Both the position numbers and the translations under genes were made by a program. Positions 4,814 to 21,580 of a stretch of DNA of 22,477 nt are shown in pieces. The notes beneath the pieces were generated by a model. That model searched no databases. It had not been told where the DNA came from and was given only the letters and a program-made list of their open reading frames with translations. Origin of the DNA: a virus; the IMG/VR virus record IMGVR_UViG_3300031707_000197, positions 1-22,477 of that record, one strand, 5' to 3'. The stretch's first letter is position 1. Each line of letters begins with the position of its first letter.

Positions 4814-7327
4814 ATGAGTGAATATAAAATAAAAACCCCACATGCTGCAGTATTAGTATGGAACTATAAGGACAGAATAGGCATTCCGGAAGGGAATAAT
4901 CCTCGCACGCAGGACTTTCAAGATAGTGGACTTAAGGATAGAGGGATAGAGGGCGGAGCAAGCCAAAAAAATCAAGAAACTGTTCCAGTTATAGTGAGCA
5001 CATTGTCTTGCGTATCTATACAAACAAATAAGAGTAAAGGAAAACCTGATGGATCATTCAACTTAGTCCTTGCTCCATTTAAAAACTGGACATCAAATTT
5101 AACAGCTGGTAGTTGGTGTTGCCTACTAATGTCTAATGAGTCCATCTTAGAGAAAGATCTCAAACACGCCGATAAAAACAAAGTAAAAATGCTTGGTCGA
5201 ATTGAATCTGTTAGAACAGAAACCAAAATGGAAACTGATGGAACCAGACGAACTTTATATTATGTAACTGGAACTGATTGGGGAGATATTTTTAACTCTA
5301 CAATATATATTGATAACTTAATTAAAGGACCAAATGATAAAGGCAATAGTCAGGGTGATGTTGCAGCTCTAGCTCTTAGACAGATTTTATTTGCTAATGC
5401 CGGATCGCCTAAACATTTTACAGTTAATTATAATTTAACAGCATTATTAGGCATAATGGGTAAAAATTTAGGTAACTTCACCGGTACACCTCGAGAGGTT
5501 GGTAGATTAGCAAACGCTATGTATGAGTTTGCTTTACCAAATGAAGTCATTAACTATTTTGATTTTAGATCAATTAGTGCATCGGCTGAAGTACAGAAGA
5601 AAAAATTATCTGGCAAATCTTTGAATAATTTTATTAAGTTAATATCTGGATCGCTAGTTAATTATGATAAGTATTACGATACGGAAGAATCATTAGGCTT
5701 TATAGATCCATTCTCTATTCAGGGTACACACTCATTGTGGCAAATTCTATTAGAAAACAGCAATCCCGCCTTAAATGAAATGCTTTGTGACTTTAGATGG
5801 AGTAATGATGAAGGTGACAATGGTGTTACATTGGCTCTTTATAACAGAATAAAACCATTTGCTTTTAGGAACTTTAATCCTAGAGCAGGTAAAAGCAATA
5901 GATTAAAATCTTACTTTCAATATGTTAAAACAAATAAAATAGAAAATAATGAAGTTATTTCTGTAAATGCTGGAACAAATTGGAGAGATAAAATTAACTT
6001 TATTGAAATTAAACCACAATTTTCTGAGTTTAAAATTGTATCGAATTGGATTAAACAGAAGTCTCAAGTATTTGATCCTAAGTCATTTGAGCGCGAAGGT
6101 TTTCGTTCTATGATAGTTGACACCAAACAGTTTCCTAGAAAAAAGGATGGTGGTGTTAGCGCCAAAAAACTAAAAGCAATCTCAAGTTCAAGTTCAAGTC
6201 CAGTTAAGCCAACGAGTGTTGCTGATGCTGCCATTGCTGCTACTAAAGCTGCTTCAGCTGCTGCTGCTAGAATTATTGAGATGTACAATGTTGGTAACGT
6301 TACAGGCTTTGTTGATGTTATTCATGCCAATTATGACGTTAATAGTAAAGCTCTTGAAGCCATTAAGGCTGACTTAATTGTTCCCACATCTAAATCTACT
6401 GATCCTGTTACCACTGCTGATGCCGCTAAAGCTGCTGCAGAATCCGACGCTTCTGCTACCACTTTTACTAATAATCTCTTTAATATTCCTGGACTTTCAC
6501 CTACAGGAACTGGTAGTGTTCTTCGAAACGAACCTGCAACCCCTGCTTCTCCCACTCCCGCACAAGAGGCTGCCACTGCAACTGCAGCTGCTAGAACTGC
6601 TGCTGCTAAAGTTATTTTAGCGGCTAATTCTGGCACCGTTGAAGAACTAGCTAATGCCATTAGTGAATCAGATAGTGCCAGCGCAACGGCTGCTTCTGCC
6701 CTCTCTTCTCCCACAGTTATTATCCCTACATCTTCCGCTGCTGCACCAGAAGGCGTTTCTGCCAAAGTTGTCGCAACTGCCGCTGCTGCTGAAGCAGATA
6801 AAGCTGCTGCTGCAGCAGTTGCTGCTGCCGCTGCCGCCGCTGATGCCACAGCATTATCGACTAATGACTCAGCAATAGATTGGAATGAATTAGAGAGTTG
6901 GGCACTTTTAATGCGAGAGTGGTTTTTTGGCACACACAGAATGCTTAATGGAACAATTGTTATCCATGGATCTACTCAATATATTGGAATAGGCGAGAAT
7001 ATTATATTTGATGCAGGACTTTTAAATCCCACGCCAAATATAAATGCGGCAACAGTGAAGTCACAAAAAAATGAATCTATATTGGCTCATATAGAGTCAG
7101 TTCAGCATAGTTTTACAGTAGATGACAATGGTGCTAGAACATATAGAACAACAATACAATTCGTACGTGGAATTACTGTAAATAGTAATAATGAAGTCGT
7201 TGGTGAAGGCATGCTTGATCAAAATGTCACAAAAACAACTCAATCTGATGATAGAAATAGTTTAAATACAGTTAGTACTTCTGATATACTGTCTGACCCA
7301 GATCCACAAAAAGTAAAAGGTACATAA
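4814..7327 (+). CDS. Baseplate hub protein (gp27/gpD-like position) with Ala-rich insertion
   Basis: This 837-residue protein starts at ATG 4814, with GGTGAG (4800-4805) upstream. The N-terminal region (about residues 55-400) has features expected of a hub ring: TLSCVSIQTNKSKGKPDGSF, then PFKNWTSNLTAGSWCCLLMS, then GRIESVRTETKME and YYVTGTDWGDIFN, a layout in which the chain builds beta-barrels around the tube axis. The conserved-looking C-terminal part (about 690-800) includes EWFFGTHRMLNGTIVIHG and IESVQHSFTVDDNGARTYRT. Between them, residues about 455-688 are an Ala/Ser/Thr-rich, low-complexity insertion containing an internal duplication. The gene overlaps the spike gene by one base (TAATG), indicating translational coupling and partnership. 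Hub identity is inferred from these features and from position between tape measure and spike genes. Confidence 0.75.
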   Translation: MSEYKIKTPHAAVLVWNYKDRIGIPEGNNPRTQDFQDSGLKDRGIEGGASQKNQETVPVIVSTLSCVSIQTNKSKGKPDGSFNLVLAPFKNWTSNLTAGSWCCLLMSNESILEKDLKHADKNKVKMLGRIESVRTETKMETDGTRRTLYYVTGTDWGDIFNSTIYIDNLIKGPNDKGNSQGDVAALALRQILFANAGSPKHFTVNYNLTALLGIMGKNLGNFTGTPREVGRLANAMYEFALPNEVINYFDFRSISASAEVQKKKLSGKSLNNFIKLISGSLVNYDKYYDTEESLGFIDPFSIQGTHSLWQILLENSNPALNEMLCDFRWSNDEGDNGVTLALYNRIKPFAFRNFNPRAGKSNRLKSYFQYVKTNKIENNEVISVNAGTNWRDKINFIEIKPQFSEFKIVSNWIKQKSQVFDPKSFEREGFRSMIVDTKQFPRKKDGGVSAKKLKAISSSSSSPVKPTSVADAAIAATKAASAAAARIIEMYNVGNVTGFVDVIHANYDVNSKALEAIKADLIVPTSKSTDPVTTADAAKAAAESDASATTFTNNLFNIPGLSPTGTGSVLRNEPATPASPTPAQEAATATAAARTAAAKVILAANSGTVEELANAISESDSASATAASALSSPTVIIPTSSAAAPEGVSAKVVATAAAAEADKAAAAAVAAAAAAADATALSTNDSAIDWNELESWALLMREWFFGTHRMLNGTIVIHGSTQYIGIGENIIFDAGLLNPTPNINAATVKSQKNESILAHIESVQHSFTVDDNGARTYRTTIQFVRGITVNSNNEVVGEGMLDQNVTKTTQSDDRNSLNTVSTSDILSDPDPQKVKGT
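6178..6876 (+). repeat. Ala/Ser-rich low-complexity insertion with internal duplication in the hub gene
   Basis: Hub residues about 456-688 are dominated by Ala, Ser and Thr, encoded largely by GCT/GCA runs, so this DNA is visibly richer in GC than its surroundings. Two copies of a unit align: residues 469-526 (ending ADLIVPTS) and 583-640 (ending PTVIIPTS), offset 113-114 residues with a one-residue indel. Nucleotide identity is low apart from GCT runs, suggesting an old duplication. A 12-base perfect palindrome (CTGCTGCAGCAG, 6807-6818) lies in the final Ala tract. The region is probably helical or disordered. Confidence 0.7.
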
Positions 7328-8358: not shown

Positions 8359-9339
8359 ATGTCAATAAGTATTAAAGATATTAAGAGTGTATTTGAGCGA
8401 CCTAAGGTGAAACCATCTACGTCAGCTACTTCTGGTCAGTCTCAACCTGGGGGAATAGCATTTGATGAGAGATTCTTGTCAAATGGAACTAATACATATA
8501 CAATTAAAAGTGAAAACTGGTACACAGCAAAACCCTATGGTTTTAAGGCTACATTAAGAACTGGTGCTACAGTTGTGATGTTTCTACCCATTAATCCAAG
8601 TAATTTAACAATAACTACTAATTTTGCTACTAATATAATTTCTACATTATATGGTACTGTTGAAGAGCACTCTGATGTTAGATATTTTGATATCACTATT
8701 GCAGGAACTACAGGTATAGCTCCTAGGTTTGTTGCACCGTCTATTGTAGATGGCGGCGATATGGATCCTGGTGCAGCATACGAATCTCTTAGAAAATCAG
8801 GTCGTTCGGCATTTGCACCTGTTGATTCTTTTAGTGCAGGCGGTTTCTTTTCTAAAACATTAGCGATAGCAAATCAAATTAAAAATAAAGCAAATGATTT
8901 AGTCAATGGAAGCGCAAAACCTAAAAATGGTCTAAATGCTGATAATAGTGGATATGTTGCTTTTCATAATCTATATCGCTTCCTTCTTCAATATAAAAAA
9001 GATGCAGCTGGTGTTATCAACAGTAATAATCGCAAGAAACATCCATTAACTTTCTTTAATTATAAAGATGGAAATCGGTACGATGTAGCTGTACGCAGTT
9101 TTACAATGGTTAGATCTGCTGATAATCCAATGCTATATAACTATACTATTCAACTTCGTGGGTACAACTTGCAAAGTCTTACCGATAAAGTTGATGAAAA
9201 TATACAAAGAAGACTTCAAGATCTAGGTTTAGCTGGAATTGATGGTTCTTCTATATTAGGTGATATCAAGTCTATTTCTAGTAAAGCAAAGGGAATTATA
9301 GGTTCTGCGGTTGGCGGAATAAATTCACTAGGTAGATAA
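8359..9339 (+). CDS. Baseplate hub-associated structural protein, unnamed family
   Basis: I chose ATG 8359 (326 residues). A TTG at 8341 in the same frame would add six residues but sits directly against AAGG with no spacer and inside the TATAAT-containing gap. After a disordered N-terminus, residues about 45-125 form a beta-rich domain (TYTIKSENWYTAKPYGFKAT, then MFLPINPSNLTITTNF and STLYGTVEEHSDVRYFDITI). A helical linker follows, then a second beta domain at about 220-285 (HPLTFFNYKDGNRYDVAVRS, then YNYTIQLRGYNL). The split-domain layout, with a final strand typical of tail adaptor proteins, and position between the spike and the LysM/gp25 gene suggest a hub or tube-baseplate junction component. 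I do not recognise a named family. Its stop overlaps the next start (TAATG at 9337-9341), so the two are translationally coupled. Confidence 0.6.
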   Translation: MSISIKDIKSVFERPKVKPSTSATSGQSQPGGIAFDERFLSNGTNTYTIKSENWYTAKPYGFKATLRTGATVVMFLPINPSNLTITTNFATNIISTLYGTVEEHSDVRYFDITIAGTTGIAPRFVAPSIVDGGDMDPGAAYESLRKSGRSAFAPVDSFSAGGFFSKTLAIANQIKNKANDLVNGSAKPKNGLNADNSGYVAFHNLYRFLLQYKKDAAGVINSNNRKKHPLTFFNYKDGNRYDVAVRSFTMVRSADNPMLYNYTIQLRGYNLQSLTDKVDENIQRRLQDLGLAGIDGSSILGDIKSISSKAKGIIGSAVGGINSLGR

Positions 9340-10937
9340 TGGCAACTATTAATGAAGCATATAAAAGCATTGCTGATGTGAATCTCTGGTTAAGATCTAG
9401 AGGTGGCGATGATTTAACTCTTGCTGATATACCTTCTATTATTCCACTTCGTTGGTTACATTTTAGAGAAAATTGGGAATTCATGAAACCAGACTTGCTG
9501 AACAACATATCGCAAGATGTAGACCCTGATTTATTTAATCAACAAATAAATGATTTTTCTAATCTTATTGAATCACAAAGAAACTCTAATAAGATCAATC
9601 CATTTCAAGATTCTCAAACTTTTTATCGTTTTTATACTATATTTAATAATATTCTTATTCAAAGTATTAATCTAACCAATGAAGAACAAGAAATCATTGA
9701 TAATGAGCTGACACGTATTAATAGTTTTTCTAAGAATAATTTTCTCAGTGCTAAAAATAATATTATTGATTATAGAGATAGAGTTGCAGATACTTCAGGC
9801 CTTAGTGATAGTGATTACAATAAAGCATTTGGTAAAGATTCAATTCCACCTCAAATTAATGCCACAATAGTGGAAGCTAACTATCTACTTACACTAGAGT
9901 ATTCAATAAGAACATGTGATTTTATTTTAGCAAATCTTTTTGCAGTAGACTCTGCTATTGACCCATTTGCTTTAGCAAGGGCCAATGCAAATAACCCCAA
10001 TATAAATATTGGAAGTTATAAGTCTGGTAAATTAGTAAAAATTAACTATGGTGAAAGTTTAGAAAGTCTCGCTACTAGATACCTAGGTGACCCTAATAAA
10101 TGGTTAGATATAGCTATTGCCAATGGATTAAAACCTCCATATATTGATGAGGTTGGCGTTAGAATACCACTTCTATCAAATGGTGCCGGAAGTCAAATAA
10201 ATTTAGCAGAAACAGATATAGACGGCGAGTTAAATATCAATAAGCTGTATATAAATCAACAAGTATTCTTGCAATCAACTACAGAAGTTGTTCCGAATCA
10301 AAGGACTATTATAAATATTAGGCAAGTGCCAGTTTCAGGCGAAATTATACTTGAACTAGATGGCGATGCTAATATGAATATTTACCAAATAGCAGATCAA
10401 GCTCATATTAGAGTTTATGCCCCAAATACAATAAACAGCTCCTTCTTTGTACTTATCCCCTCTAATGAGCCTTTGGATGATTTTCGTAAAGAAGAGGTGC
10501 CATGGTTTTTAGCTAAGAGCGCCGATGATGAAAAACGAGCTAAAGTCGATCTAGCAATTGACTCAAATGGAGAGTTAACTTTAACATCAAATAGTGACAT
10601 TAGATTAAGTTATGGTCTAGAAAATGCAATTCAGGCTATAAAGCTCAAGATAATTACCGAATTAGGTTCTCTAAGATACCATCCTACTTTTGGATTGGTC
10701 AATGTTTTGGGCACCAAGAACATCAATATAGATGATACTATAGAGTTGATAACTGAGTCAATAGTTTCACAAGTTGAGGCTGATAGTAGGTTTGATAGGA
10801 TCGAGAATCTCTCAGTTGATTATTTAAGCAGTGATGCAACAAATGAGGGAGTTAGTGCTATTCTTATCAACTTAGTAGTAAGATTAGCAGGCGGAAACAA
10901 GGTGATTCCTATTAGTTTTACGGTGAATAACACTTAA
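9339..10937 (+). CDS. Baseplate protein: LysM-like segment joined to gp25/gpW-like domain
   Basis: This 532-residue protein starts at ATG 9339 in a TAATG overlap with the previous stop. Residues 1-220 are mostly helical and unassigned. Residues about 231-280 are LysM-like: VKINYGESLESLATRYLGDP, then NKWLDIAIANGLKPP and the end RIPLLS. In T4, gp53 carries such a domain and XkdP-type proteins do too. Residues about 425-530 resemble gp25/gpW (XkdS type): AIQAIKLKIITELGSLRYHP, then TFGLVNVLG, SIVSQVEADSRFDRIENLSV and a final strand ending PISFTVNN. gp25-type proteins staple the inner baseplate and start the sheath. Having both on one chain suggests an inner-baseplate protein merging gp53-like and gp25-like roles. 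The gpJ-like gene follows, the classic gp25-gp6 order. Confidence 0.75.
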   Translation: MATINEAYKSIADVNLWLRSRGGDDLTLADIPSIIPLRWLHFRENWEFMKPDLLNNISQDVDPDLFNQQINDFSNLIESQRNSNKINPFQDSQTFYRFYTIFNNILIQSINLTNEEQEIIDNELTRINSFSKNNFLSAKNNIIDYRDRVADTSGLSDSDYNKAFGKDSIPPQINATIVEANYLLTLEYSIRTCDFILANLFAVDSAIDPFALARANANNPNINIGSYKSGKLVKINYGESLESLATRYLGDPNKWLDIAIANGLKPPYIDEVGVRIPLLSNGAGSQINLAETDIDGELNINKLYINQQVFLQSTTEVVPNQRTIINIRQVPVSGEIILELDGDANMNIYQIADQAHIRVYAPNTINSSFFVLIPSNEPLDDFRKEEVPWFLAKSADDEKRAKVDLAIDSNGELTLTSNSDIRLSYGLENAIQAIKLKIITELGSLRYHPTFGLVNVLGTKNINIDDTIELITESIVSQVEADSRFDRIENLSVDYLSSDATNEGVSAILINLVVRLAGGNKVIPISFTVNNT

Positions 10938-10967: not shown

Positions 10968-13900
10968 ATGGCAATTCAAATTAAGTCATTTAATCAGATC
11001 CTCGGGGATATGATTAGGAAAATAATAGCAGAAACGGCACTTAATGACTTAAATGCTGGGTCTGTATTATTGACATTACTTGAAGCGGCCGCATCAAACG
11101 ATTTTGAAAACAATACTGCAATTCTCAATGTTTTAGAGTTACTTAACATAGATGCAATTAAAAATAATGACCTAGATGCTAAAGCTGGTGATTTTGGACT
11201 TTCTCGAAGAACAGCCATTAAAGCTTCTGGTCTAGTTGATATTTATAACACTAATATTACAAAACGAAGCACTGGGTTATATGTTATTAAGCCGGCACCT
11301 ATTGCTGGACAAACTAAGATATACGTCAACAATACAACTGGATGGTCACTTACTGGTAGTTTATACATTGGTCGAGGGACTCAGTCTTTTGAAGGACCAA
11401 TTACTTATACGAGTATAGTTGTATTTCCTACATACTCAGAAATCACACTTGGATCGGCACTTCAAAAAGATCATCTAATATCTGATTCTGTTATAGATTC
11501 ACAGGGACAACCAGATATATTAATTAATGCTGGAACAAATGTAAATATACCAGCTAACAATCAAAATCCAGAAATTAACTATATCACTCTACGCGATGCT
11601 ATTATTCCTTCCGGTGAAGATAAGGTCTCTGGTGTAAGTGTTATAGCTATTGTAGCAGGATCATTGGGTAATGCTGGGATCAACACTATTACTAATTTTG
11701 ATGTACCTCCATTTTCTGGAGCAGGAGTATCTAATACTTCTGCTTTCTCAAGTGGACGAGATATCGAGACAGACACTGAATTACGAAATAGACTTAAGTC
11801 TTATTCTATTACTCTTGCTAGAGGTACTGCCCCAAGCATAATTTCTGCAGTTATCGGTGTATCTGATCCAGATGATAGCAATCAAGTGGCCTCTGCGGTC
11901 ATTACAGAACCAATTAAAGTCGGTGATCCTTCTATTCTATATATTGATGATGGCAGTGGATTTCAACCCTCTTTTGCTGGACAATCAGTTGATAAATTAC
12001 TTAATAATGCAGTGGGTAGTGAGGAATTTTTACAACTAGCAAATTACCCTCTTCCTCGTCCACAAGTAATAAATGTAGATGAAGGACCGTTTACAATTAT
12101 TGAGGGATCTTTTTTAAGAGTAAGTGTAGATGGTCAAGAAGAGACAATATACTTTGACTCTACTCAGTTTTTAAATATATCTGCAGCAACTTTATCTGAA
12201 ATCATTATAGTAATAAATACAAACTCTACATTGTTTAAAGCTAGATTTGCTAATAATTCTACGGGTATATTACTATATCCCGTAGAACATGATGCAGAGA
12301 TTATTCAAGTAGCTCCATTAAGAAGTACTGATGACCCTACACTTTATGCAAATACACTCTTAAAATTTCCTACAGATGAGTTCAGTTATATATCATTATA
12401 TAAAAACAGTGAACTACTTAGAGAAAAAGCAATAGGTGCTGAATTAGAGACTGCTTCTTTTGCACAATGGAACATCACATCTGTTGGCAATATCATTATA
12501 GCTGTAGACAATACACCAACTCAAGATAGAAACTTTGCCCTAAGTGATTTTCCTGGAGCAGTTTCTTTTGCATCGTTGTCGCTACAAGATTGGGTGGATA
12601 CATTTAATTCAAAATTCGCAGGACTTACTGCTGAGGCTACACCAAGTCAAACTATGATTATTCGCTCTAATAAAATTGGAGCAGAATCTTCTATCGTCGT
12701 AAGCGGTGGAACACTACTTAATAAATGGTTTCCTAATTTACCTCTAGAGTCGCAAGGACAAACTGCACAGTTTGAGTTAAATAGACAGACTGGTAATCTA
12801 CGCATCCTCGCTGATATTGTTGCTGGAGATAGTATCTCTGCCGGCATAGAAGATGCTAAAGGTTTTGCGGTATCTGCTGCAACAACATCTGGCAATTATA
12901 ATCTTTCATCTGATGGGGTCGGAAGACCAGCTGAGATGGTGATTGTAGTTGATTCTACTTATTGCAATAAAAAGGCTATACCTTTACTCATTGGCAGTAA
13001 TATATCTATACTTGCATCTGGATCAACTATGACTATCACATCTGACAGTGCCGACTCTTTTGCTGCACTAAAGCCAGGTGATTTCATATATCTAGTTAAA
13101 AGAACTGCTGGTTGGATCAGTGCAGCAAACTCTGGATTATTTAAGATTAAGGCGAAAGGCAATCATACGGCAGCAGGAATAGATACTTATGTAGTTGTTG
13201 ACAATGATGGTGCCGTCACAGAGGGTGGAATTCCTATTGCAGACTCTTTGGATATAAAAGCTTTCGAGACAGATGGTTTTCCACAGATCTGGCGCGGATC
13301 GTATTTAGCTAATCCGCCAGCAGAACCAATAACTGGAGTTCTAAACTCTTTAAATGAAGATGTTGCAGGTGTGTTAGCAACTATTTTTAGATCAAATTCT
13401 ATAAAAATCACATCTACTTCTGAAAATAGTGGAAGTTTAGCAATACCTATATCTATAGGTAACGCTTCAGTTTTCTTCACTGAGACAGATACTGCTCAGC
13501 TTGGTAATCCATCACATATAGCTACAAGAGTCTCTGATAAGACATTAGTATCTCTATTTAAGGCTACAAGCCCAACAGCTACTAATGTATTTTTAGATAG
13601 ACATATCTATGCAGATGTAAAAGGTGCACTATCATCCAATGCTGTACCTGATGTATCTCCTTTTGCTGGCACTTATAGTGAAACAGTGCAGTCAACTGGA
13701 GTACTTACACCAGCTAATGTTGACTTTGATGACTATTTATCTTTTACTAGAGGCAATAATCGAAATCAATTTAGAACTATAAAAGCTAAGATTGCTGTCG
13801 ATCAAGTTGGAACCCAACAGTCAACAGCTCGCACAGAATTAGATCACATTGCGTTAAACGAATTTGAACTTGTTAGACCAGTATCCATATCATCTGAAGA

Positions 13901-16900
13901 CAGCATAGTCGTGGTGATGGATAAGGATGCGACAATCAATACTGTTGATGTACGCATGTCTAGAACAGGGATAGTCAATTCAGGATCAAATCCTGGGGCA
14001 TTCGTGCCAACAACAACAGAATTCTCTGCAAATGATCAGGACAATGAACCTGGCATCGATTTTAACAACACGAATGTTTGGGGCACTATTGTAAATGGTA
14101 CGGACTTTAGTGACTATGCTGTTTGGTTAAGAGCCCGTAACTGGTATTCTACCGGTGGCGTTGCTGGTTCAGGCGGAAAGATGCTTGTTCGCTCCGCTCA
14201 GTATGGACCAAATGGTGAGAAGATTCGTTTCAATATTGAATATCCTACATCATCTGATCAAGCTGGAACTACTACATTTATTAATACTCCATCTTATAGT
14301 TTATATTCATACTATTTTGGATCTGGTCCAGCAAGAGCTACCACTATAGGTGCTGGCGATACTATTGCAGTAAAAGGTCCTTATCCTGACACTGCTACAA
14401 ACTTTCCAAATGGTGCAGTATCTGCCGGTGATTATTTTGACTACACATTCTCAGCTGGCACTTTAGCTACTGTATCTGTAGGTGATGTACTATCTATTAC
14501 CGATGGTTCAGGCGTATCTGCATCAAACTCTGGACAATTTAGTGTAACGAACAAGAGCGGATTAACGGTTCGAGTATTTAATCCAAGTGCAAGTATCACT
14601 ACTCCTGGTGCCGCTGAAGTTACAACAGTAACTACTGTAGCTGACATCATTGGTACACCTACAAGTTTTACTATTAATACAGTGGCAGATATTGCAGGAT
14701 CTTTACATCAGACATATTTTATTGTTTATGATACACAGGGTTCTGTTGCAGTGTGGTATGACATTGATAACGTTGGTGCTGTTGCACCTCCACATGGAGC
14801 AAATAGAGCTATTAAAGTAGCAACAGTAGTGACTGGCGATAGTGCTAATGACGTTGCTACTAAGACTGGCCAGGCTATTGCACTTGACAATGCTTTTAGT
14901 GTGGGTGTAATTACAAATCAAATTACTATTACAAACTTAATAAATGGAGCATTAGCAAGTGCTTCTGCAGGTACTTCTGGTTTCACACCAGCAACAATTA
15001 CAGGCACTGCAGATAATTCACTTGATGGAAAATATTTCATACTTCATGATGCAGTGGGCTCTGTTGCAGTGTGGTATGACGTAGGCAATGATGGTACATC
15101 TGAACCATTCCATGGAGCAGATCGTTCTATACGAGTATCTGGAGTTAATTATGGTGACTCTGCCACTACAGTTGCAGCAGCCACTGTTGCAGATGTTAAC
15201 CCTGATCTATCTTTTATTGCATCAAATTTAGGCAACGTAATCACTATCACTAATGTCTTTAACGGTAATTCAGCAGCAGCGACAGCTAATACCTCTGGTT
15301 TTGGAGTATCATCTGTAAACGGTTCTTTACCTGCAGATGAACTGATCGCTAATGCAAATAACGTCGTAATATTTCCATTGACAGAGACAGATGTGGCTAC
15401 CATTGCCGCTACAGTAAATGCAGGACAGATAGTAAAACTTGTAGCTGTTGGAAGTAGTGCCTTAACAATTGAAAAGGCAACTAGAGAAGATATCTATGTA
15501 TATGGCGGTAACTCAACAGCGCTAGGATATGGGCATAATCCTACAGTAGCTGCAGATAGAAATCATGTTAAATTATATGATTCTGTAAATTGGGTCAAGA
15601 GCTTTCAAAACTCAAATCCAAACTTTACTTTAAAGACTACTTTTACTCTAAATCTTGTTGCACCATCTGTATATGCCCTAGATACTGCTCCAAACGATGA
15701 TACAGCTAGTCTTGGAGAACAATTTAAACTTATTCCTGTTAGCGTTAAAAATATTCATCACCACTTGACACAAAAAGCACTCTCACAGCTTCCAATTATA
15801 TCTAACGTTAGAATTTCACAAGATCGTAAGAATGTGCAGATAACATCTAAGAGTTTAGGCTCTGATGGTTCTATTGAAGTAATAGGTGGAAATGCAAATA
15901 AAGCTCAAGCATATCTTGTCAGTGAATCTGAAGTATCTTCAGATATAAATGGCAACTTCTTACTAGTTAAAACCCCAGCCTTTCCTGATACATTTAATGC
16001 TGGTGATTTAATTAGCATTCAAAATGATGCAGGTGTTAAGAGATTTTCTAGACTTATAAACACTGACAAAATTACTGTTACTAATCCTTCATCTGGGATC
16101 ATAGAATATAATTACAATCCAAAAGCAATTGGTGTTCTTTCAACAACTGCTTTTACAATTACAGATGTCTCTGGATCATATGGAAGACCTGCTGGATATG
16201 TATGGCGATGGACACACGGTGGCGGCGGAGTTACACTTGCTCAAGTTAGAGCAGGAGATCAAGTGTTTGCATTTGGTCCAAGTCTTTCTTACGATCAGGG
16301 AAATAAAGTAAGGGTTGCAGGCGATGGACAAGTTGCAGGTCTTCCAATTATTTTCGTAAACGACGCATCTAACTATATGGACGTATTAAACCCATATGGT
16401 AAAACAATGCCAGTAGTATTCACTGTCGCTTCAGCAAATGCGACAGCTGGTGCTACATATACTCACGGTGGTCTTACTTTTACTGTCTTATCTACAATTG
16501 CACCTGGTGTATCATTAACTATGTCTGGTCCAGTACCCACTTCACCATCAGGTACATTGACAAAAACAAGTGGGGCCGGTGATGCAACAATTACTTTCAC
16601 ATCTTATACTGCCTCTACGATAGGTGTAGGTCTTACCTTTACAGCCAATACTAATTTTGGAACTTTCTTACCAGCAAATATAACGCTACCAAGCACTATT
16701 ACTTTTGCTAATACTTTTACAGCCAATCAACAAGTTAGTTTTAGTTCAACCGGTACATTACCTTCTGGGTTGCAAGCTGGAATTATATATTATGTAGTAA
16801 ATCCAACAGGTGCAAATTTTCAAGTTTCTAATACTCCAAGTGGAGCAGCTATAAATCTTATAACAATTGGAAGTGGAACACATACAGTTGTATCTGCAAT

Positions 16901-18689
16901 GTTGACTGCTGTATCATCTACAGTTGGACTTATCGTTGGTCAATATGTTACTGGAGTAGGTATTCCTACGGGGACTCAAATTACTAATATAGGCACCAGT
17001 ACTGTAACTATGTCCAATGTGGCCACTACAGCAGGAACAGGTATTACTGTATCGGTACCTAATACTGTTCAAGTTTGTCCTACTCCTATTATTAAATGGA
17101 ATTTAACTCATGCAGCAAAATCTAATATATCTTCAATGTCTAGAATAGCCAACGTAGTCACAGTAGTTTGTGATGGCCCACATATGTTAAATACTGGTGA
17201 CAGTGCAGATATTGCAGACAGCAATAATTTAGTAGATAGTAGTTATGGACCAATTACGTCAACATCTACAAATCAATTCACGTTTGCATCAGTTGGAGCC
17301 AACTTCGCAGAGACAAACGTAGGTTCAACTTCTATTAAAACTGGACTTGTCCCTACACGATATAGATTAGAAAAACTTGGTTTTAACAGTTTGATTCGCA
17401 TATCTAGAACAGATGGTGAATCGCCGCGTTTTACGGATTGCGGTGTAGCACTAGATGATTATGTAGTCATTGGTGGCTCAACCTTTAAATCAAACAATAA
17501 CGGACGTTTTAGAGTTCTTGCTGTAGATAACTCATCGATGATATTAATTAATGAATCTGGCTCAGATGAGCTAAATACTACTGTTCCGTTTAATAATAAA
17601 AGTTTGTACGCTACTTGGACTGCAAATACAAATGTAGTTACAGGTGTTGCGGGAACATTTAAGTATTTGAATATAGGCGACTGGGTTAAGAAACCCGAAG
17701 ATCCTGATTCACTTTACAGACAAGTTCTAAGCTTTTCTCCTGGTACACCTAGCACAGCAACATCTATAATTTTAGGTGGCAATTACGGCGGATCAAGTGC
17801 TATTGCACCTGGTGTTAGCTATGACATGTTAAATGATTACGACAAGGGCGTTATTCTTCAAGGTATAGACGATATCATTATATATGAAGGTGATGCAGCT
17901 GCTACAGGTGACTCACTTTTTGTTCAAAATATAGTCAACACAAATTGGTTTAGCGTAAATAATATTGGTAATTTTGAGGTCAATGAAGTAGGTACAAATA
18001 TAGCTACTTATAAACCTTTTATTCGAATCTCTAATTCTGCAGGTATAGCTGAGTCAAGTAGATTAATGTCTGTTGATACTGCTGGTTTCTATTTAATAGA
18101 GGGACTAGCTAATAAATTCTCGTCTATTCGTAAAATTACACATGCAATATTAGATGATCTAAATGACGAACGACGCTCAATATATTTAACTCCAAGCAAT
18201 AGATCTTATAAGTTTAGCGATGTAAATGCAACAAGTATTACTAATTTAGGTAAACTTGGATATAATACCAATGTCACTACTGGAATAGATGGGTACCTAT
18301 ACTATACTGGACTCTTACGAAGAGTTCAACGTATAGTTGATGGTTATGAACCAGATGCAGATAACTTTCCAGGACGCAGAGCAGTTGGTGGAGCAATAGA
18401 AACATTACCACCTCTTAATAGAAGAATAATGGTTACTATTGACGTAACGACAGATGAAGGTGTAAACTTAGGTGACATTTCTAATAACATTAAGTCAACG
18501 ATAATTAATTATATCGGGACATTGGGTGTTGGTGAAGATGTAATCCTATCTGAGATGATTGCGGCCGTAATGCAGATTAAAGGCGTTGCTGCTGTTACTT
18601 TTACTAACCCAGTTCCTAGTACAGAGCGAATTACTATAACTAGCAATGAGAAAGCGACAATAACACCTAATGATATTGGGATTGCATAA
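10968..18689 (+). CDS. Giant baseplate J/gp6-like wedge protein with about 2100-residue modular insertion
   Basis: This 2573-residue protein starts at ATG 10968 behind AAGGCGG (10958-10964). The N-terminal end matches baseplate J proteins: helical DLNAGSVLLTLLEAAAS (28-44), DAKAGDFGLSRRTAIKASG (70-88), GSLGNAGINTITNF (about 231) and GRDIETDTELRNRLKSYS (263-280), followed by a TAPSIISAVIGV segment. The C-terminal end (about 2478-2573) has RRIMVTIDVTTDEGVNLGDI and EDVILSEMIAAVMQIKGVAA, the usual closing domain of the family. Family members are commonly 300-700 residues. Here about 2100 residues of short beta-type modules lie between, including a 106-residue tandem repeat (1234-1445), fibre-type modules (1824-2034) and several copies of motifs also present in the next protein. 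The ends should dimerise in the wedge ring that drives contraction. The insert probably projects outward, perhaps as a decoration or receptor-contacting arm (inference). Confidence 0.8.
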   Translation: MAIQIKSFNQILGDMIRKIIAETALNDLNAGSVLLTLLEAAASNDFENNTAILNVLELLNIDAIKNNDLDAKAGDFGLSRRTAIKASGLVDIYNTNITKRSTGLYVIKPAPIAGQTKIYVNNTTGWSLTGSLYIGRGTQSFEGPITYTSIVVFPTYSEITLGSALQKDHLISDSVIDSQGQPDILINAGTNVNIPANNQNPEINYITLRDAIIPSGEDKVSGVSVIAIVAGSLGNAGINTITNFDVPPFSGAGVSNTSAFSSGRDIETDTELRNRLKSYSITLARGTAPSIISAVIGVSDPDDSNQVASAVITEPIKVGDPSILYIDDGSGFQPSFAGQSVDKLLNNAVGSEEFLQLANYPLPRPQVINVDEGPFTIIEGSFLRVSVDGQEETIYFDSTQFLNISAATLSEIIIVINTNSTLFKARFANNSTGILLYPVEHDAEIIQVAPLRSTDDPTLYANTLLKFPTDEFSYISLYKNSELLREKAIGAELETASFAQWNITSVGNIIIAVDNTPTQDRNFALSDFPGAVSFASLSLQDWVDTFNSKFAGLTAEATPSQTMIIRSNKIGAESSIVVSGGTLLNKWFPNLPLESQGQTAQFELNRQTGNLRILADIVAGDSISAGIEDAKGFAVSAATTSGNYNLSSDGVGRPAEMVIVVDSTYCNKKAIPLLIGSNISILASGSTMTITSDSADSFAALKPGDFIYLVKRTAGWISAANSGLFKIKAKGNHTAAGIDTYVVVDNDGAVTEGGIPIADSLDIKAFETDGFPQIWRGSYLANPPAEPITGVLNSLNEDVAGVLATIFRSNSIKITSTSENSGSLAIPISIGNASVFFTETDTAQLGNPSHIATRVSDKTLVSLFKATSPTATNVFLDRHIYADVKGALSSNAVPDVSPFAGTYSETVQSTGVLTPANVDFDDYLSFTRGNNRNQFRTIKAKIAVDQVGTQQSTARTELDHIALNEFELVRPVSISSEDSIVVVMDKDATINTVDVRMSRTGIVNSGSNPGAFVPTTTEFSANDQDNEPGIDFNNTNVWGTIVNGTDFSDYAVWLRARNWYSTGGVAGSGGKMLVRSAQYGPNGEKIRFNIEYPTSSDQAGTTTFINTPSYSLYSYYFGSGPARATTIGAGDTIAVKGPYPDTATNFPNGAVSAGDYFDYTFSAGTLATVSVGDVLSITDGSGVSASNSGQFSVTNKSGLTVRVFNPSASITTPGAAEVTTVTTVADIIGTPTSFTINTVADIAGSLHQTYFIVYDTQGSVAVWYDIDNVGAVAPPHGANRAIKVATVVTGDSANDVATKTGQAIALDNAFSVGVITNQITITNLINGALASASAGTSGFTPATITGTADNSLDGKYFILHDAVGSVAVWYDVGNDGTSEPFHGADRSIRVSGVNYGDSATTVAAATVADVNPDLSFIASNLGNVITITNVFNGNSAAATANTSGFGVSSVNGSLPADELIANANNVVIFPLTETDVATIAATVNAGQIVKLVAVGSSALTIEKATREDIYVYGGNSTALGYGHNPTVAADRNHVKLYDSVNWVKSFQNSNPNFTLKTTFTLNLVAPSVYALDTAPNDDTASLGEQFKLIPVSVKNIHHHLTQKALSQLPIISNVRISQDRKNVQITSKSLGSDGSIEVIGGNANKAQAYLVSESEVSSDINGNFLLVKTPAFPDTFNAGDLISIQNDAGVKRFSRLINTDKITVTNPSSGIIEYNYNPKAIGVLSTTAFTITDVSGSYGRPAGYVWRWTHGGGGVTLAQVRAGDQVFAFGPSLSYDQGNKVRVAGDGQVAGLPIIFVNDASNYMDVLNPYGKTMPVVFTVASANATAGATYTHGGLTFTVLSTIAPGVSLTMSGPVPTSPSGTLTKTSGAGDATITFTSYTASTIGVGLTFTANTNFGTFLPANITLPSTITFANTFTANQQVSFSSTGTLPSGLQAGIIYYVVNPTGANFQVSNTPSGAAINLITIGSGTHTVVSAMLTAVSSTVGLIVGQYVTGVGIPTGTQITNIGTSTVTMSNVATTAGTGITVSVPNTVQVCPTPIIKWNLTHAAKSNISSMSRIANVVTVVCDGPHMLNTGDSADIADSNNLVDSSYGPITSTSTNQFTFASVGANFAETNVGSTSIKTGLVPTRYRLEKLGFNSLIRISRTDGESPRFTDCGVALDDYVVIGGSTFKSNNNGRFRVLAVDNSSMILINESGSDELNTTVPFNNKSLYATWTANTNVVTGVAGTFKYLNIGDWVKKPEDPDSLYRQVLSFSPGTPSTATSIILGGNYGGSSAIAPGVSYDMLNDYDKGVILQGIDDIIIYEGDAAATGDSLFVQNIVNTNWFSVNNIGNFEVNEVGTNIATYKPFIRISNSAGIAESSRLMSVDTAGFYLIEGLANKFSSIRKITHAILDDLNDERRSIYLTPSNRSYKFSDVNATSITNLGKLGYNTNVTTGIDGYLYYTGLLRRVQRIVDGYEPDADNFPGRRAVGGAIETLPPLNRRIMVTIDVTTDEGVNLGDISNNIKSTIINYIGTLGVGEDVILSEMIAAVMQIKGVAAVTFTNPVPSTERITITSNEKATITPNDIGIA
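14667..14984 (+). repeat. Tandem repeat unit 1 (106 residues) in the gpJ-like gene
   Basis: Residues 1234-1339. The core reads YFIVYDTQGSVAVWYDIDN, then PPHGANRAIKV, TITNLINGA and the end TSGF. A 21-base stretch at 14742-14762 (encoding SVAVWYD) is identical to 15060-15080 in unit 2, exactly 318 bases (106 codons) later. Domains with a 'GSVAVWY' core and 'HGA.R.I.V' recur in phage tail and fibre proteins from my knowledge of such sequences; their function is unclear. Confidence 0.85.
14985..15302 (+). repeat. Tandem repeat unit 2 (106 residues) in the gpJ-like gene
   Basis: Residues 1340-1445. The core reads YFILHDAVGSVAVWYDVGN, then PFHGADRSIRV, TITNVFNGN and the end TSGF, aligning with unit 1 without net length change at the conserved landmarks. 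Outside the identical 21-base stretch the copies have diverged considerably, so the duplication is not very recent, or that stretch is under selection or conversion. Confidence 0.85.
16437..17068 (+). repeat. Run of fibre-type short modules inside the gpJ-like gene
   Basis: Residues about 1824-2034 contain three modules of the kind common in phage fibres and baseplate appendages: GATYTHGGLTFTVL...SGTLTKTSGAGDATITF, then TLPSGLQAGIIYYVV...GSGTHTV, and then SSTVGLIVGQYVTGVGIPTG with STVTMSNVATTAG. The last resembles a module in the next gene (SVVGLAIGQQVIMDGVPP, about 20023-20076), so related modules sit in both proteins. Confidence 0.6.
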
Positions 18690-18693
18690 TTGA

Positions 18694-21015
18694 ATGGCAA
18701 ACAATAAGGGAAAAGTTGATCAACTACACGACTTGCTTCCTAAGCACTTAAATAGTAAAACCAATACCAATTGGAAAGCTATTGTAGAGGCATTAGGTGA
18801 AGCAGATCAAGGTACGGCAGATTTAGTTGCTGAAGTACGTAAGCAGTTCTTTATTAAGACTGCCTCTAGACCTTATCTTGACAGATTAGCAGCAAATAGT
18901 AAGATTTCTCGTCCACGTCTAGTTGGCATGGATGATCCATCTTTTAGACAGTACATCCCAGTTCTCTCTTATCAACCGAAACAAGTTAAATTAATTATAG
19001 ATCAATTGCTAGATGTATTCTTCTTTAAAGAATCAACGACGGCATTTCTTACTTCACAGAATTTTGAGTCATTTGATTTGAGTGACGGCTGGGAATTAGA
19101 GATGATCATTGATGAGCAAAATAGTGAACGTATTGTTTTTAAGACAGATGACTTCACAAACATAAATGCTGCTTCAGCCGATGAAGTTGTGGCCGCTATA
19201 AATCGTCAATCTAAATATAGCTATGCAACACCATATTACGACAGTATCACTAAGAATACTTATATTAAGATTTTTACTAATACTGTTGGCTCTAAGGGTT
19301 CTTTAAGAATCTTGGGTGGAAGGGCAAATATTGCTATTAGATTGAATGGCTTTATTGATCTTGCTGGCAATGGTGCAAATACTCAATGGACTGTCACTAA
19401 AGTTGGTGATCAAGTTACTTTTCAATATACTGCAGGAGCAAATCCTGGGATAAATGTTTTACAAGAAGATGATTTGATTATAGTTGATCTTGCTGGCAAT
19501 GAAGGCTGGTTCTCTATATCTAATGTCGATCTTGTCAATGGCAGTATAACTTTTACAAACTTATTTGGTACAGCAGGTGTATTTACACAAACAAGTGCTG
19601 AGCAGGTTAAATTTCTTACACCTAATAAATATGTTGCTTACCTAAATCCTAGACGTGCAATGACTTGGGAGACGTCACCGGGTGAGATCACTGTAGAGAT
19701 GCCGACATCTCCACCTGTAGTTAAAAGATCACTTAAGGGGTCAATACATCTAAACGGTGCATTCAGTCAAATGTCTAATAGAGATAGCAATACAGCACTA
19801 ACCCTAGTTGACGCATATCAATTTCCAGAGTCTGGCACATTCTTTTTAGAACGAGTCGATGAGAGATTGACAAGAATGTTGACTATCTCTGAGAACGTTA
19901 TAGTTTCTAAAAAAACTAATAGTAGATTAAACTATGAAACAGATAGGTATGAGTATGCGAGTAGAGTTGCTCTTGCCACTACGGGCGATATAACCGATGG
20001 TGTAGCGCAAATTGTAAATTTAGCTTCTGTAGTTGGTTTAGCTATAGGTCAACAAGTCATAATGGACGGTGTTCCACCGTATGCAAGAGTTACTAGCATA
20101 GCTGGTCCTATTGCAAACATATCTCATCCTGCAACTGCTACAGCGGTAGCTCAGTCTGTTAAATTTTTAGGTAATCAGCTTACAGGGATTACGCCAAATT
20201 TACCAGCATTAGCTAGTTTAAATGAATTTACACTTCTTTCGCTTTCTAGAACTGCAAATGTTGTTACAGGGACTACTGTAGCACCGCATGGCTATGTTGT
20301 AGGAGAATCAATTATAATTTCAAATACAAGTGGTGGACCTGGTTTCTTTAATGGAGCCTTCACTGTAGCGAGTGCTAGTGGTTCGACTTTCACATATAAT
20401 CAAGTTGGTGGCAATGGTGCAGCAACTACATTAGGTGAATCGCGTATCGAGCGAGATGGATTATCTAATGACGGTTCAAAGGTAATCGCGACAGATGCGG
20501 TAGTTAAGGACATAAGTCGTATAACTGGTTCTTATATCTGGGATCAAGCTGCTGCTTTTGTTTTATCATCTAATACAGCTGAAGTGAATGATGCAATACA
20601 GGCTGGAAAAATCATTAGGTTGCTAAATACAACAGCAAATGATATATCGCCAGATGGTGGATTCATAATATTTGACTATGGAAGAGAGAATCAAGAGGGG
20701 CCAGTTAGGTATTTATATAAGCCTACAAATAACACTATTGCCATAGATCCCTCATATACGTTCAAACATAGTCATCCTGCTGGTTCACCTATAGTGGCTA
20801 TCAATAGAAAGGGGCCTCATCAGATGAGTGGTCGTGCCTCTGAGTATCCTGCTTATATCACTGATCCATCAGAAGCTAGATTTATATTACAAGAACTCAT
20901 TAAGTCTGTTAAAAGTGCTGGTATATTCGTAAATTTTTTGGTTAGGTATCCAGAGCAATTGTATGCAACATTGGATGTTTATCAAAGTGGAGTCGATCCA
21001 GATGATATTGCTTAA
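18694..21015 (+). CDS. Baseplate wedge/fibre-connector protein (gpI or gp7 position), modular
   Basis: This 773-residue protein starts at ATG 18694, four bases after the gpJ-like stop, with no strong SD, so it may depend on coupling. Residues 1-110 (NWKAIVEALGEADQGTADLV, RPYLDRLAANSKISRPRL, MDDPSFRQYIPVLS) resemble the helical start of tail protein I-type wedge proteins, which follow gpJ in P2-like tails. The middle is modular: residues 157-215 (SADEVVAAINRQ...SLRILGGRANI), 255-290 (EDDLIIVDLAGNEGWFSIS), 440-480 (SVVGLAIGQQVIMDGVPP) and 513-560 (LSLSRTANVVTG...HGY), each with a relative in the gpJ-like protein. The C-terminal end (about 700-773: SEYPAYITDPSEARFILQEL, VNFLVRYPEQLYATLDVYQ) looks complete. 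It probably links wedge to fibres. Confidence 0.65.
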   Translation: MANNKGKVDQLHDLLPKHLNSKTNTNWKAIVEALGEADQGTADLVAEVRKQFFIKTASRPYLDRLAANSKISRPRLVGMDDPSFRQYIPVLSYQPKQVKLIIDQLLDVFFFKESTTAFLTSQNFESFDLSDGWELEMIIDEQNSERIVFKTDDFTNINAASADEVVAAINRQSKYSYATPYYDSITKNTYIKIFTNTVGSKGSLRILGGRANIAIRLNGFIDLAGNGANTQWTVTKVGDQVTFQYTAGANPGINVLQEDDLIIVDLAGNEGWFSISNVDLVNGSITFTNLFGTAGVFTQTSAEQVKFLTPNKYVAYLNPRRAMTWETSPGEITVEMPTSPPVVKRSLKGSIHLNGAFSQMSNRDSNTALTLVDAYQFPESGTFFLERVDERLTRMLTISENVIVSKKTNSRLNYETDRYEYASRVALATTGDITDGVAQIVNLASVVGLAIGQQVIMDGVPPYARVTSIAGPIANISHPATATAVAQSVKFLGNQLTGITPNLPALASLNEFTLLSLSRTANVVTGTTVAPHGYVVGESIIISNTSGGPGFFNGAFTVASASGSTFTYNQVGGNGAATTLGESRIERDGLSNDGSKVIATDAVVKDISRITGSYIWDQAAAFVLSSNTAEVNDAIQAGKIIRLLNTTANDISPDGGFIIFDYGRENQEGPVRYLYKPTNNTIAIDPSYTFKHSHPAGSPIVAINRKGPHQMSGRASEYPAYITDPSEARFILQELIKSVKSAGIFVNFLVRYPEQLYATLDVYQSGVDPDDIA

Positions 21016-21580
21016 TGATTTTATAACTCACATTAATAAAAGAAAATCACCCAGATACCTTGGAGAAATTAACAAAGAAATTCGATATGCATGTTATTGT
21101 GAAAAATGTAACAGTTTTAGGGGCTATATAAAACTTAGTCATTATAAAAAGAAAAGCAAACTATGTAAGAAATGTTATTGCAATACGGATAATTTTATAG
21201 AAAAACAAAGAAAAAACACTAAAAATTATTTTATTAAAAATCCATATAAAGTGGATCCAATAAAAGCTCTTAAACGAAGAATATCTGTTAATTTAAGAAA
21301 TAGATTAAATAGAGCAATAAAAGGTAACTATAGGACTGGTTCTGCTGTAAGAGATCTCGGCTGTTCAATTAATGGTGTTAAATCTCACTTAGAATCATTA
21401 TTTCAACCAGGTATGACTTGGGAGAACTATGGTTGCAAGGGGTGGCATATAGACCATATTACCCCTTTAAATGCCTTTGATCTTTGTGATTTACAGCAAG
21501 TTAAGAAAGCTTGTCATTATATGAATTTGCAGCCATTGTGGGCTAAAGATAACATATCAAAAAGTGATAGAGCTAATTAA
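21002..21580 (+). CDS. Free-standing HNH endonuclease with zinc ribbon
   Basis: I chose ATG 21002 (192 residues), with GGAG (20989-20992) nine bases upstream. It overlaps the end of the previous gene by 14 bases in another frame. An earlier in-frame ATG at 20963 would add 13 unconvincing residues. Residues 33-36 and 55-58 are paired CxxC motifs (CEKC, CKKC), a likely zinc ribbon. A basic helical segment (90-115) and a possible DNA-contact region (RDLGCSINGVKSHLESLF) follow. The HNH core is GWHIDHITPL (His149, Asp151, His152) with NLQPLW (Asn175) and DNISKSD (Asn184), matching intact phage HNH nucleases. DNA cleavage near this locus and self-spread by homing is the usual behaviour of such genes. 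The gene is more AT-rich and more Lys/Asn-rich than the structural genes around it, suggesting separate origin. It has no promoter of its own that I can see. Confidence 0.85.
   Translation: MILLNDFITHINKRKSPRYLGEINKEIRYACYCEKCNSFRGYIKLSHYKKKSKLCKKCYCNTDNFIEKQRKNTKNYFIKNPYKVDPIKALKRRISVNLRNRLNRAIKGNYRTGSAVRDLGCSINGVKSHLESLFQPGMTWENYGCKGWHIDHITPLNAFDLCDLQQVKKACHYMNLQPLWAKDNISKSDRAN

What the first reader, a model, noticed from the sequence alone, without database searches (positions are those of the whole stretch)
12183..20400. The same small modules recur in the gpJ-like and the gpI-like proteins
At least four motif types occur in both. (a) An 'A..l...IN......i.I.s...G..gs..i.GG.a' unit at gpJ residues about 406, 540-585, 793-838 and 1601-1648, and gpI-type residues 157-215. 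(b) A 'GD.i.i.......G.F.v' unit at gpJ 701, 1676, 1760 and 2158, and gpI-type 255. (c) A 'vGl.iGq.V...GvP' unit at gpJ 1981 and gpI-type 440. (d) An 'SR.ANVVT...pH.l..Gd...i' unit at gpJ 2055 and gpI-type 513. This points to duplication and shuffling between neighbouring genes, building two wedge proteins with a shared outer surface.
Basis: seen in the sequence. Interest (0 to 1): 0.6.

Follow-up and report, generated by a model that had tools for sequence, protein, structure and literature searches.

The report
Two phage baseplate proteins share modules
Two neighbouring baseplate genes of a large bacterial virus really do share small protein modules, but mostly because the two genes look like ancient copies of one gene; the one clearly recent module gain came from outside, not from the neighbour.

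Summary
J (window 10968-18689, 2573 aa) and I (18694-21015, 773 aa) share all four unit types. Profile-profile scores exceed every column-shuffled or reversed control: a up to 105, b 62, c 39 and d 56, against 21 or less. One listed b site (J 1676) fails, and two b copies were missed. Two further shared parts appear: the N-terminal helical segment (I 1-96 ~ J 1-108) and a unit "e" (I 644-702 ~ J 118-177). I 30-313 runs parallel to J 37-771 once J's extra 110-331 segment (e plus the Baseplate_J core) is left out.

In 63 J and 77 I relatives the shared plan is old. Unit a clusters by position, and in 12 virus records of 153-177 kb it occurs only in J and I. The minimal pair is N-e-core-a-a-a-a-C and N-a-e-C. 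This fits ancient gene duplication, already proposed from structures for TssF/TssG; here it is visible in sequence. Unit d is also position-specific. The one clear recent event is a 217-aa insert in J carrying unit c, private to the window and one near-identical relative, and closer to an unrelated contig than to its own I. So "shuffling between neighbours" is not supported.

The parts
10968..18689 (+). J: baseplate wedge protein with Baseplate_J core, 2573 aa
   Evidence: PF04865 E=9e-9 above cut-off; phrog_6 E=2e-25; 63 distinct full-length relatives
18694..21015 (+). I: gpI/gp7-position wedge protein, 773 aa
   Evidence: phrog_1160 'baseplate protein' in 5 of 8 members; next to or just downstream of J in most relatives
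10968..11291 (+). N-terminal helical segment of J (res 1-108), homologous to I 1-96
   Evidence: hhalign P89 S48, P92 with 60 controls at most 19; public J family phrog_6 matches the N-terminus of two I relatives, E 5e-5 and 3e-5
11304..11501 (+). unit e of J (res 113-178), homologous to I 644-702
   Evidence: P83 S44; P95 with 60 controls at most 23
11505..11972 (+). Baseplate_J core of J (res 180-335), absent from I
   Evidence: no I match
12054..12353 (+). unit a, J copy 1
   Evidence: P98 S105 to I
12423..12770 (+). unit a, J copy 2
   Evidence: P96 to I
12966..13280 (+). unit b, J copy 1
   Evidence: P95 to I
13308..13589 (+). unit a, J copy 3 (weakest)
   Evidence: P26 S37; P86 with a wider segment; keeps its place in 62 of 63 relatives
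   Evidence: P88 S47 to I
14649..15245 (+). tandem repeat f, two copies (res 1228-1320, 1334-1426)
   Evidence: P99 S127 self match; profile region matches phage E217 sheath, E=0.002
15741..15905 (+). unit a, J copy 4 (core part)
   Evidence: P91, P95
16116..16409 (+). unit b, J copy 3
   Evidence: P94
16410..17060 (+). private 217-aa insert in J between b copy 3 and d; carries c at 16872-17051
   Evidence: absent from other orthologues; b3-d gap 20-22 aa in all 33 relatives with both; 651/651 nt identical in L004 only (L158 is the same contig)
17097..17384 (+). unit d of J
   Evidence: P93; own clade in the d tree
17343..17579 (+). unit b, J copy 4
   Evidence: P94
   Evidence: P91
18694..18981 (+). 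N-terminal helical segment of I (res 1-96)
   Evidence: helices in AlphaFold model
18982..19389 (+). unit a of I (res 97-232)
   Evidence: strands-helix-strands, pLDDT mostly above 90
19387..19632 (+). unit b of I (res 232-313)
19981..20160 (+). unit c of I (res 430-489)
   Evidence: one copy in 23 and two in 10 of 77 I relatives
20206..20463 (+). unit d of I (res 505-590)
20623..20799 (+). unit e of I (res 644-702)

Best explanation
J and I are the two wedge-forming ('triplex') proteins of a large contractile-tail phage related to Myxococcus phage Mx1, and they are ancient paralogues. Shown: both carry the N-terminal helical segment, unit a, unit b and unit e; in the first part of each protein they lie in the same order, with the e and Baseplate_J core segment inserted only in J. 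Inferred: one ancestral wedge gene was duplicated, J gained (or I lost) the core segment, and J multiplied unit a to four copies before this phage group radiated. Inferred from T4, T6SS and XM1: the homologous N-termini of two J and one I form the pseudo-threefold helical bundle that ties each wedge together, and a follows directly after it. The long stretches between the conserved units of J and I take up small domains (b, c, d, f, kelch propellers), probably surface decorations or spacers. The window's 217-aa J insert is such a gain, taken from the wider phage tail-protein pool.
For: N~N and e~e profile matches far above 60 shuffled controls each. With J 110-331 left out, I 30-313 aligns to J in one stretch, score 183, against 127 for the best single stretch of intact J and 162 or less for six other deletions. 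The public J family phrog_6 matches the N-terminus of two I relatives, and phrog_15814 matches unit a in both J and I at the same profile positions. Unit a lies only in J and I in 12 virus records of 153-177 kb, including all of Mx1, and in none of 9317 other ORFs. All 77 I relatives have N-a-e-C and 62 of 63 J relatives have the four a units in order; spacing around N-e-core-a1 is nearly fixed (2-16 aa) while a3-a4 and a4-C vary by hundreds. a and d trees cluster by position. Insert. TssF/TssG are structurally related with a 2:1 pseudo-threefold complex and a proposed ancestral duplication (PMC6300606); XM1 gp16 and gp17 share domain I (PMC10457771).
Against: N and e similarity is detectable only with profiles (N_I against J: best E 0.006 in one ORF). 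The deletion gain is partly the trivial sum of two matches. e has a different place in J and I, so at least one rearrangement is needed. b and d also occur in other tail genes, so part of the likeness may be general tail-module likeness. The C-termini of J and I show no similarity. The a_I clade has modest support (53/80), and a2 and a3 are not clean clades. Stoichiometry and contacts are borrowed from other systems.
Confidence: 0.72

Rival explanations
1. One reading: modules were duplicated and shuffled between the adjacent J and I genes by repeated copying or recombination.
For: All unit types occur in both genes. A second c unit is nested in the d loop of I in several relatives, so modules do move.
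Against: a and d cluster by position, not by genome. The recent c insert in J is closer to an unrelated contig (43%) and to other relatives' c units than to its own I; the two c copies inside one I are only 29-41% alike, about as far apart as copies in different phages. The insert DNA was found nowhere else but in L004.
Confidence: 0.1
2. No paralogy: J and I each recruited common phage and bacterial beta-modules independently from a shared pool, and the N-terminal likeness is convergence of helical hairpins.
For: b, c, d and f occur in other tail ORFs; mosaicism of tail and baseplate proteins is well documented (PMC10684548); similar folds recur in FliD, E1 and endosialidases.
Against: Unit a is exclusive to J and I in each large record; a_I is closer to a_J1 (score 105-117) than a_J1 is to a_J2 (54-58); N-a-b are collinear; N and e match beyond shuffled controls.
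Confidence: 0.15
3. Low-complexity artefact: beta-rich, Gly/Ser/Thr-rich tail proteins look alike by composition only.
For: The proteins are compositionally biased and the motifs short.
Against: Composition-preserving column permutations and local shuffles never reach the observed scores.
Confidence: 0.02

Closest known systems
T6SS TssF/TssG, phage T4 gp6/gp7, XM1 gp16/gp17 wedge ('triplex') pairs
   Same: J-like and I-like wedge proteins; N-terminal helices similar in both partners; the J partner has an extra domain set
   Different: TssF and TssG have no detectable sequence similarity (PMC6300606), whereas J and I here match by BLASTP and profiles; both are much larger and full of extra beta-units
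Myxococcus phage Mx1 baseplate J-like protein (WNM70274) and 'kelch repeat protein' (WNM70275)
   Same: Orthologues of J and I, adjacent, same N-e-core-a plan in J and N-a-b plan in I
   Different: About 27% (J) and 26% (I) identity over the alignment; kelch propeller inserted in I; no insert with c in J
Flagellin_IN motif / FliD D2-D3 fold
   Same: Unit a has the '..A..l...IN..' pattern and a strands-helix-strands layout; several FliD entries among Foldseek hits of the I model (prob up to 0.97); FliD-like insert reported in XM1 sheath (PMC10457771)
   Different: Pfam Flagellin_IN best E only 0.049; Foldseek E about 0.01 and low TM-scores
E1 ubiquitin-activating enzyme FCCH-like small beta-barrel
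   Same: The I model matches Uba1 over 90 columns (rmsd 4.3, prob 1.00) and the J-segment model matches UBA6 (prob 0.82-0.84); probably through the b/d units (inference)
   Different: No Pfam match; which unit aligns was not shown by the tool; no enzyme context

Membership tests
Baseplate_J / phrog_6 wedge protein (J) | Baseplate_J domain above curated cut-off | tested here: met
   35.4 bits against cut-off 21.1; phrog_6 E=2e-25; profile matches triplex and wedge proteins of solved baseplates
gpI/gp7-type wedge protein (I) | Downstream neighbour of J in the baseplate operon | tested here: met
   same order in most relatives; extra ORF-sized gaps between J and I in some
gpI/gp7-type wedge protein (I) | N-terminal helical hairpin of the core bundle | tested here: met
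   predicted helices within residues 7-115 (moderate confidence); phrog_1160 baseplate protein match; weak match to phi92 gp146, E=0.023
gpI/gp7-type wedge protein (I) | 2:1 complex with J | not testable with these tools
   needs cryo-EM or multimer modelling
Paralogous wedge pair (TssF/TssG kind) | Shared N-terminal part, extra central domain in one partner only | tested here: met
Paralogous wedge pair (TssF/TssG kind) | Shared C-terminal (trifurcation) fold | tested here: inconclusive
   no sequence similarity of the C-termini; a is a possible equivalent but not shown
Flagellin_IN (PF07196), unit a | Pfam family match | tested here: not met
   best E 0.049, 2 of 20 members
E1_FCCH-like barrel, units b/d | Sequence family match | tested here: not met
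   no Pfam match; fold resemblance only

The most novel reading that the evidence does not exclude
In this phage group the J2-I wedge is a heterotrimer derived from an ancestral homotrimer, and the pseudo-threefold elements (N-terminal bundle plus the first a unit of each chain) are still recognisable in sequence. That would give a sequence-level fossil of how the contractile-tail wedge arose, where TssF/TssG show it only in structure.
Probability: 0.35. Interest if true: 0.6.

Novelty: new variant of a known kind. Interest (0 to 1): 0.38.

Why it matters
Paralogy of the two wedge proteins of contractile tails has been argued from structures because sequence similarity was gone. A group in which it is visible in sequence makes the duplication testable by phylogeny, and gives a set of 63 J and 77 I relatives, from small (1060-aa J and 569-aa I in L135) to huge (2922-aa J, 1441-aa I), showing where baseplates tolerate extra domains. 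It also corrects the idea that neighbouring tail genes swap modules: here the one recent gain came from outside.

Tried and rejected
(1) b unit at J 1676: not above controls. (2) Recent copying of c from I to J: rejected. (3) Finding the donor of the J insert: only partial 39-49% matches of its sub-modules to tail proteins of unrelated phages and contigs. (4) PDB sequence search with an a-unit profile: only a chance ribosomal protein. (5) Foldseek of the J 1560-2420 model gave no significant hit; the insert and the cut a4 unit were modelled with low confidence, so the fold of c in J and of a in J could not be compared directly. (6) Host assignment: Mx1 infects Myxococcus; three MAG contigs with relatives were labelled Cyclobacteriaceae, Cytophagales and Mariprofundaceae, too weak to name a host. 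(7) Literature search for Mx1 baseplate work: nothing held.
Full report
WHAT IS THERE. The finding concerns two adjacent genes: J (10968-18689, 2573 aa) and I (18694-21015, 773 aa). The window is a 22,477-base virus record. J carries the Baseplate_J domain and matches phrog_6 'baseplate wedge subunit'; I matches phrog_1160 'baseplate protein' at its N-terminus. Two upstream genes also match baseplate or tail families. The nearest phage found in the cultured-phage collection is Myxococcus phage Mx1, with the same gene pair.

HOW THE UNITS ARE DISTRIBUTED. Module HMMs run over 9616 ORFs in all fetched loci split the units into two classes. Unit a occurs in J and I ORFs only, and so does b in those loci; c, d and f also occur in other ORFs, mainly the large tail protein downstream of I. 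In 12 virus records of 153-177 kb, including all of Mx1, every a match lies in the J or I ORF; b is found a few times elsewhere. The minimal pair (L135) is N-e-core-a-a-a-a-C (1060 aa) for J and N-a-e-C (569 aa) for I. All 77 I representatives keep N-a-e-C, and 62 of 63 J representatives keep the four a units in order. Spacing is almost fixed between N, e, core and a1, and varies by up to several hundred residues between a3 and a4 and between a4 and the C-terminus. So extra domains gather in a few permissive intervals on an old scaffold.

PARALOGY, NOT NEIGHBOURLY SHUFFLING. N of I matches N of J (P92; 60 controls at most 19) and e matches e (P95; 60 controls at most 23). When J 110-331 (e plus core) is left out, I 30-313 aligns to J in one stretch with score 183, against 127 for intact J and at most 162 for six other deletions; part of that rise is simply two matches joining. 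The public J family phrog_6 independently matches the N-terminus of two I relatives, and phrog_15814 matches a in both J and I at the same profile positions. In the tree of a units, J1 and J4 are single supported clades and I is a single clade with modest support, across phages whose J proteins go down to about 27% identity; J2 and J3 need one extra change each. In the tree of d units, J, I and the downstream protein form three clades. Copies therefore track position in the protein, not the genome they sit in.

THE ONE RECENT EVENT. J residues 1815-2031 (16410-17060), which contain c, are absent from the other orthologues examined. The b3-d gap is 20-22 aa in all 33 representatives with both units. 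L004 has the insert with identical DNA, 651 of 651 nt, and no other contig has any DNA match. Its c unit is 43% identical to a module in an unrelated contig (L160) and 34-47% to the better c units of other phages' I proteins, and its own I is not among the 25 best matches. Sub-modules of the insert match tail or hypothetical proteins of Rhizobium, Sinorhizobium and Microbacterium phages. I conclude that it was gained from the common tail-module pool. In some I relatives a second c sits inside the loop of d, again only 29-41% like the first c in the same protein.

FOLDS. The I model is good locally (mean pLDDT 84): an N-terminal helical segment at moderate confidence, then a as strands-helix-strands, then small beta units. 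Foldseek places FliD entries, phage endosialidases and E1 enzymes among its PDB neighbours, and 'Baseplate protein J-like' and a sheath protein among viral predictions. The J 1560-2420 model has confident b and d regions and an undefined insert, and also finds E1 enzymes. These are resemblances with weak E-values in the PDB. No superposition of J units on I units could be made, so 'same fold' is inferred from profiles.

MECHANISM. In T6SS and T4 two J-type and one I-type chains form a pseudo-threefold wedge, and the authors of the TssF/TssG structure suggested an ancestral duplication with gain or loss of the central domain, while noting no detectable sequence similarity (PMC6300606). In XM1 domain I of both partners is homologous (PMC10457771). 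The pair here fits that scheme: shared N segment, extra core only in J, then a. I infer that N and the first a of two J and one I build the pseudo-symmetric hub of each wedge, and that b, c, d, f and propeller inserts are peripheral. This step is inferred, not shown.

VERDICT.

Noticed in passing
window 20963-21580 (+): ORF with HNH-endonuclease-like residues that overlaps the 3' end of the I gene by 53 bases; L002 has the same ORF at that place, and short similar-looking ORFs sit between tail genes in L005 and L006. No Pfam match.
   Followed up: no
window 4814-7327 (+): This 837-aa protein is about 220-265 aa longer than its counterparts (572-614 aa open frames in L004, L005, L006, L009, L010); the extra length appears to be alanine-rich segments in its middle.
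   Followed up: no
window 9339-10937 (+): Apparent fusion of a weak LysM-like segment (about res 229-283) with a gp25-like baseplate domain (404-495), two functions that are separate genes in many phages.
   Followed up: no
window 14649-15245, J residues 1228-1426: Tandem repeat f within J; the profile matches the sheath protein of phage E217 (E=0.002) and f units also occur in the large tail protein downstream of I.
   Followed up: partly
L003, L005, L006 I proteins: A c unit is nested inside the loop of the d unit, a domain inserted within a domain.
   Followed up: partly
L135 locus 13185-14891, residues 133-198: A tail-fibre-like segment (phrog_1980/2712) is inserted inside the a unit of this short I protein.
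   Followed up: no
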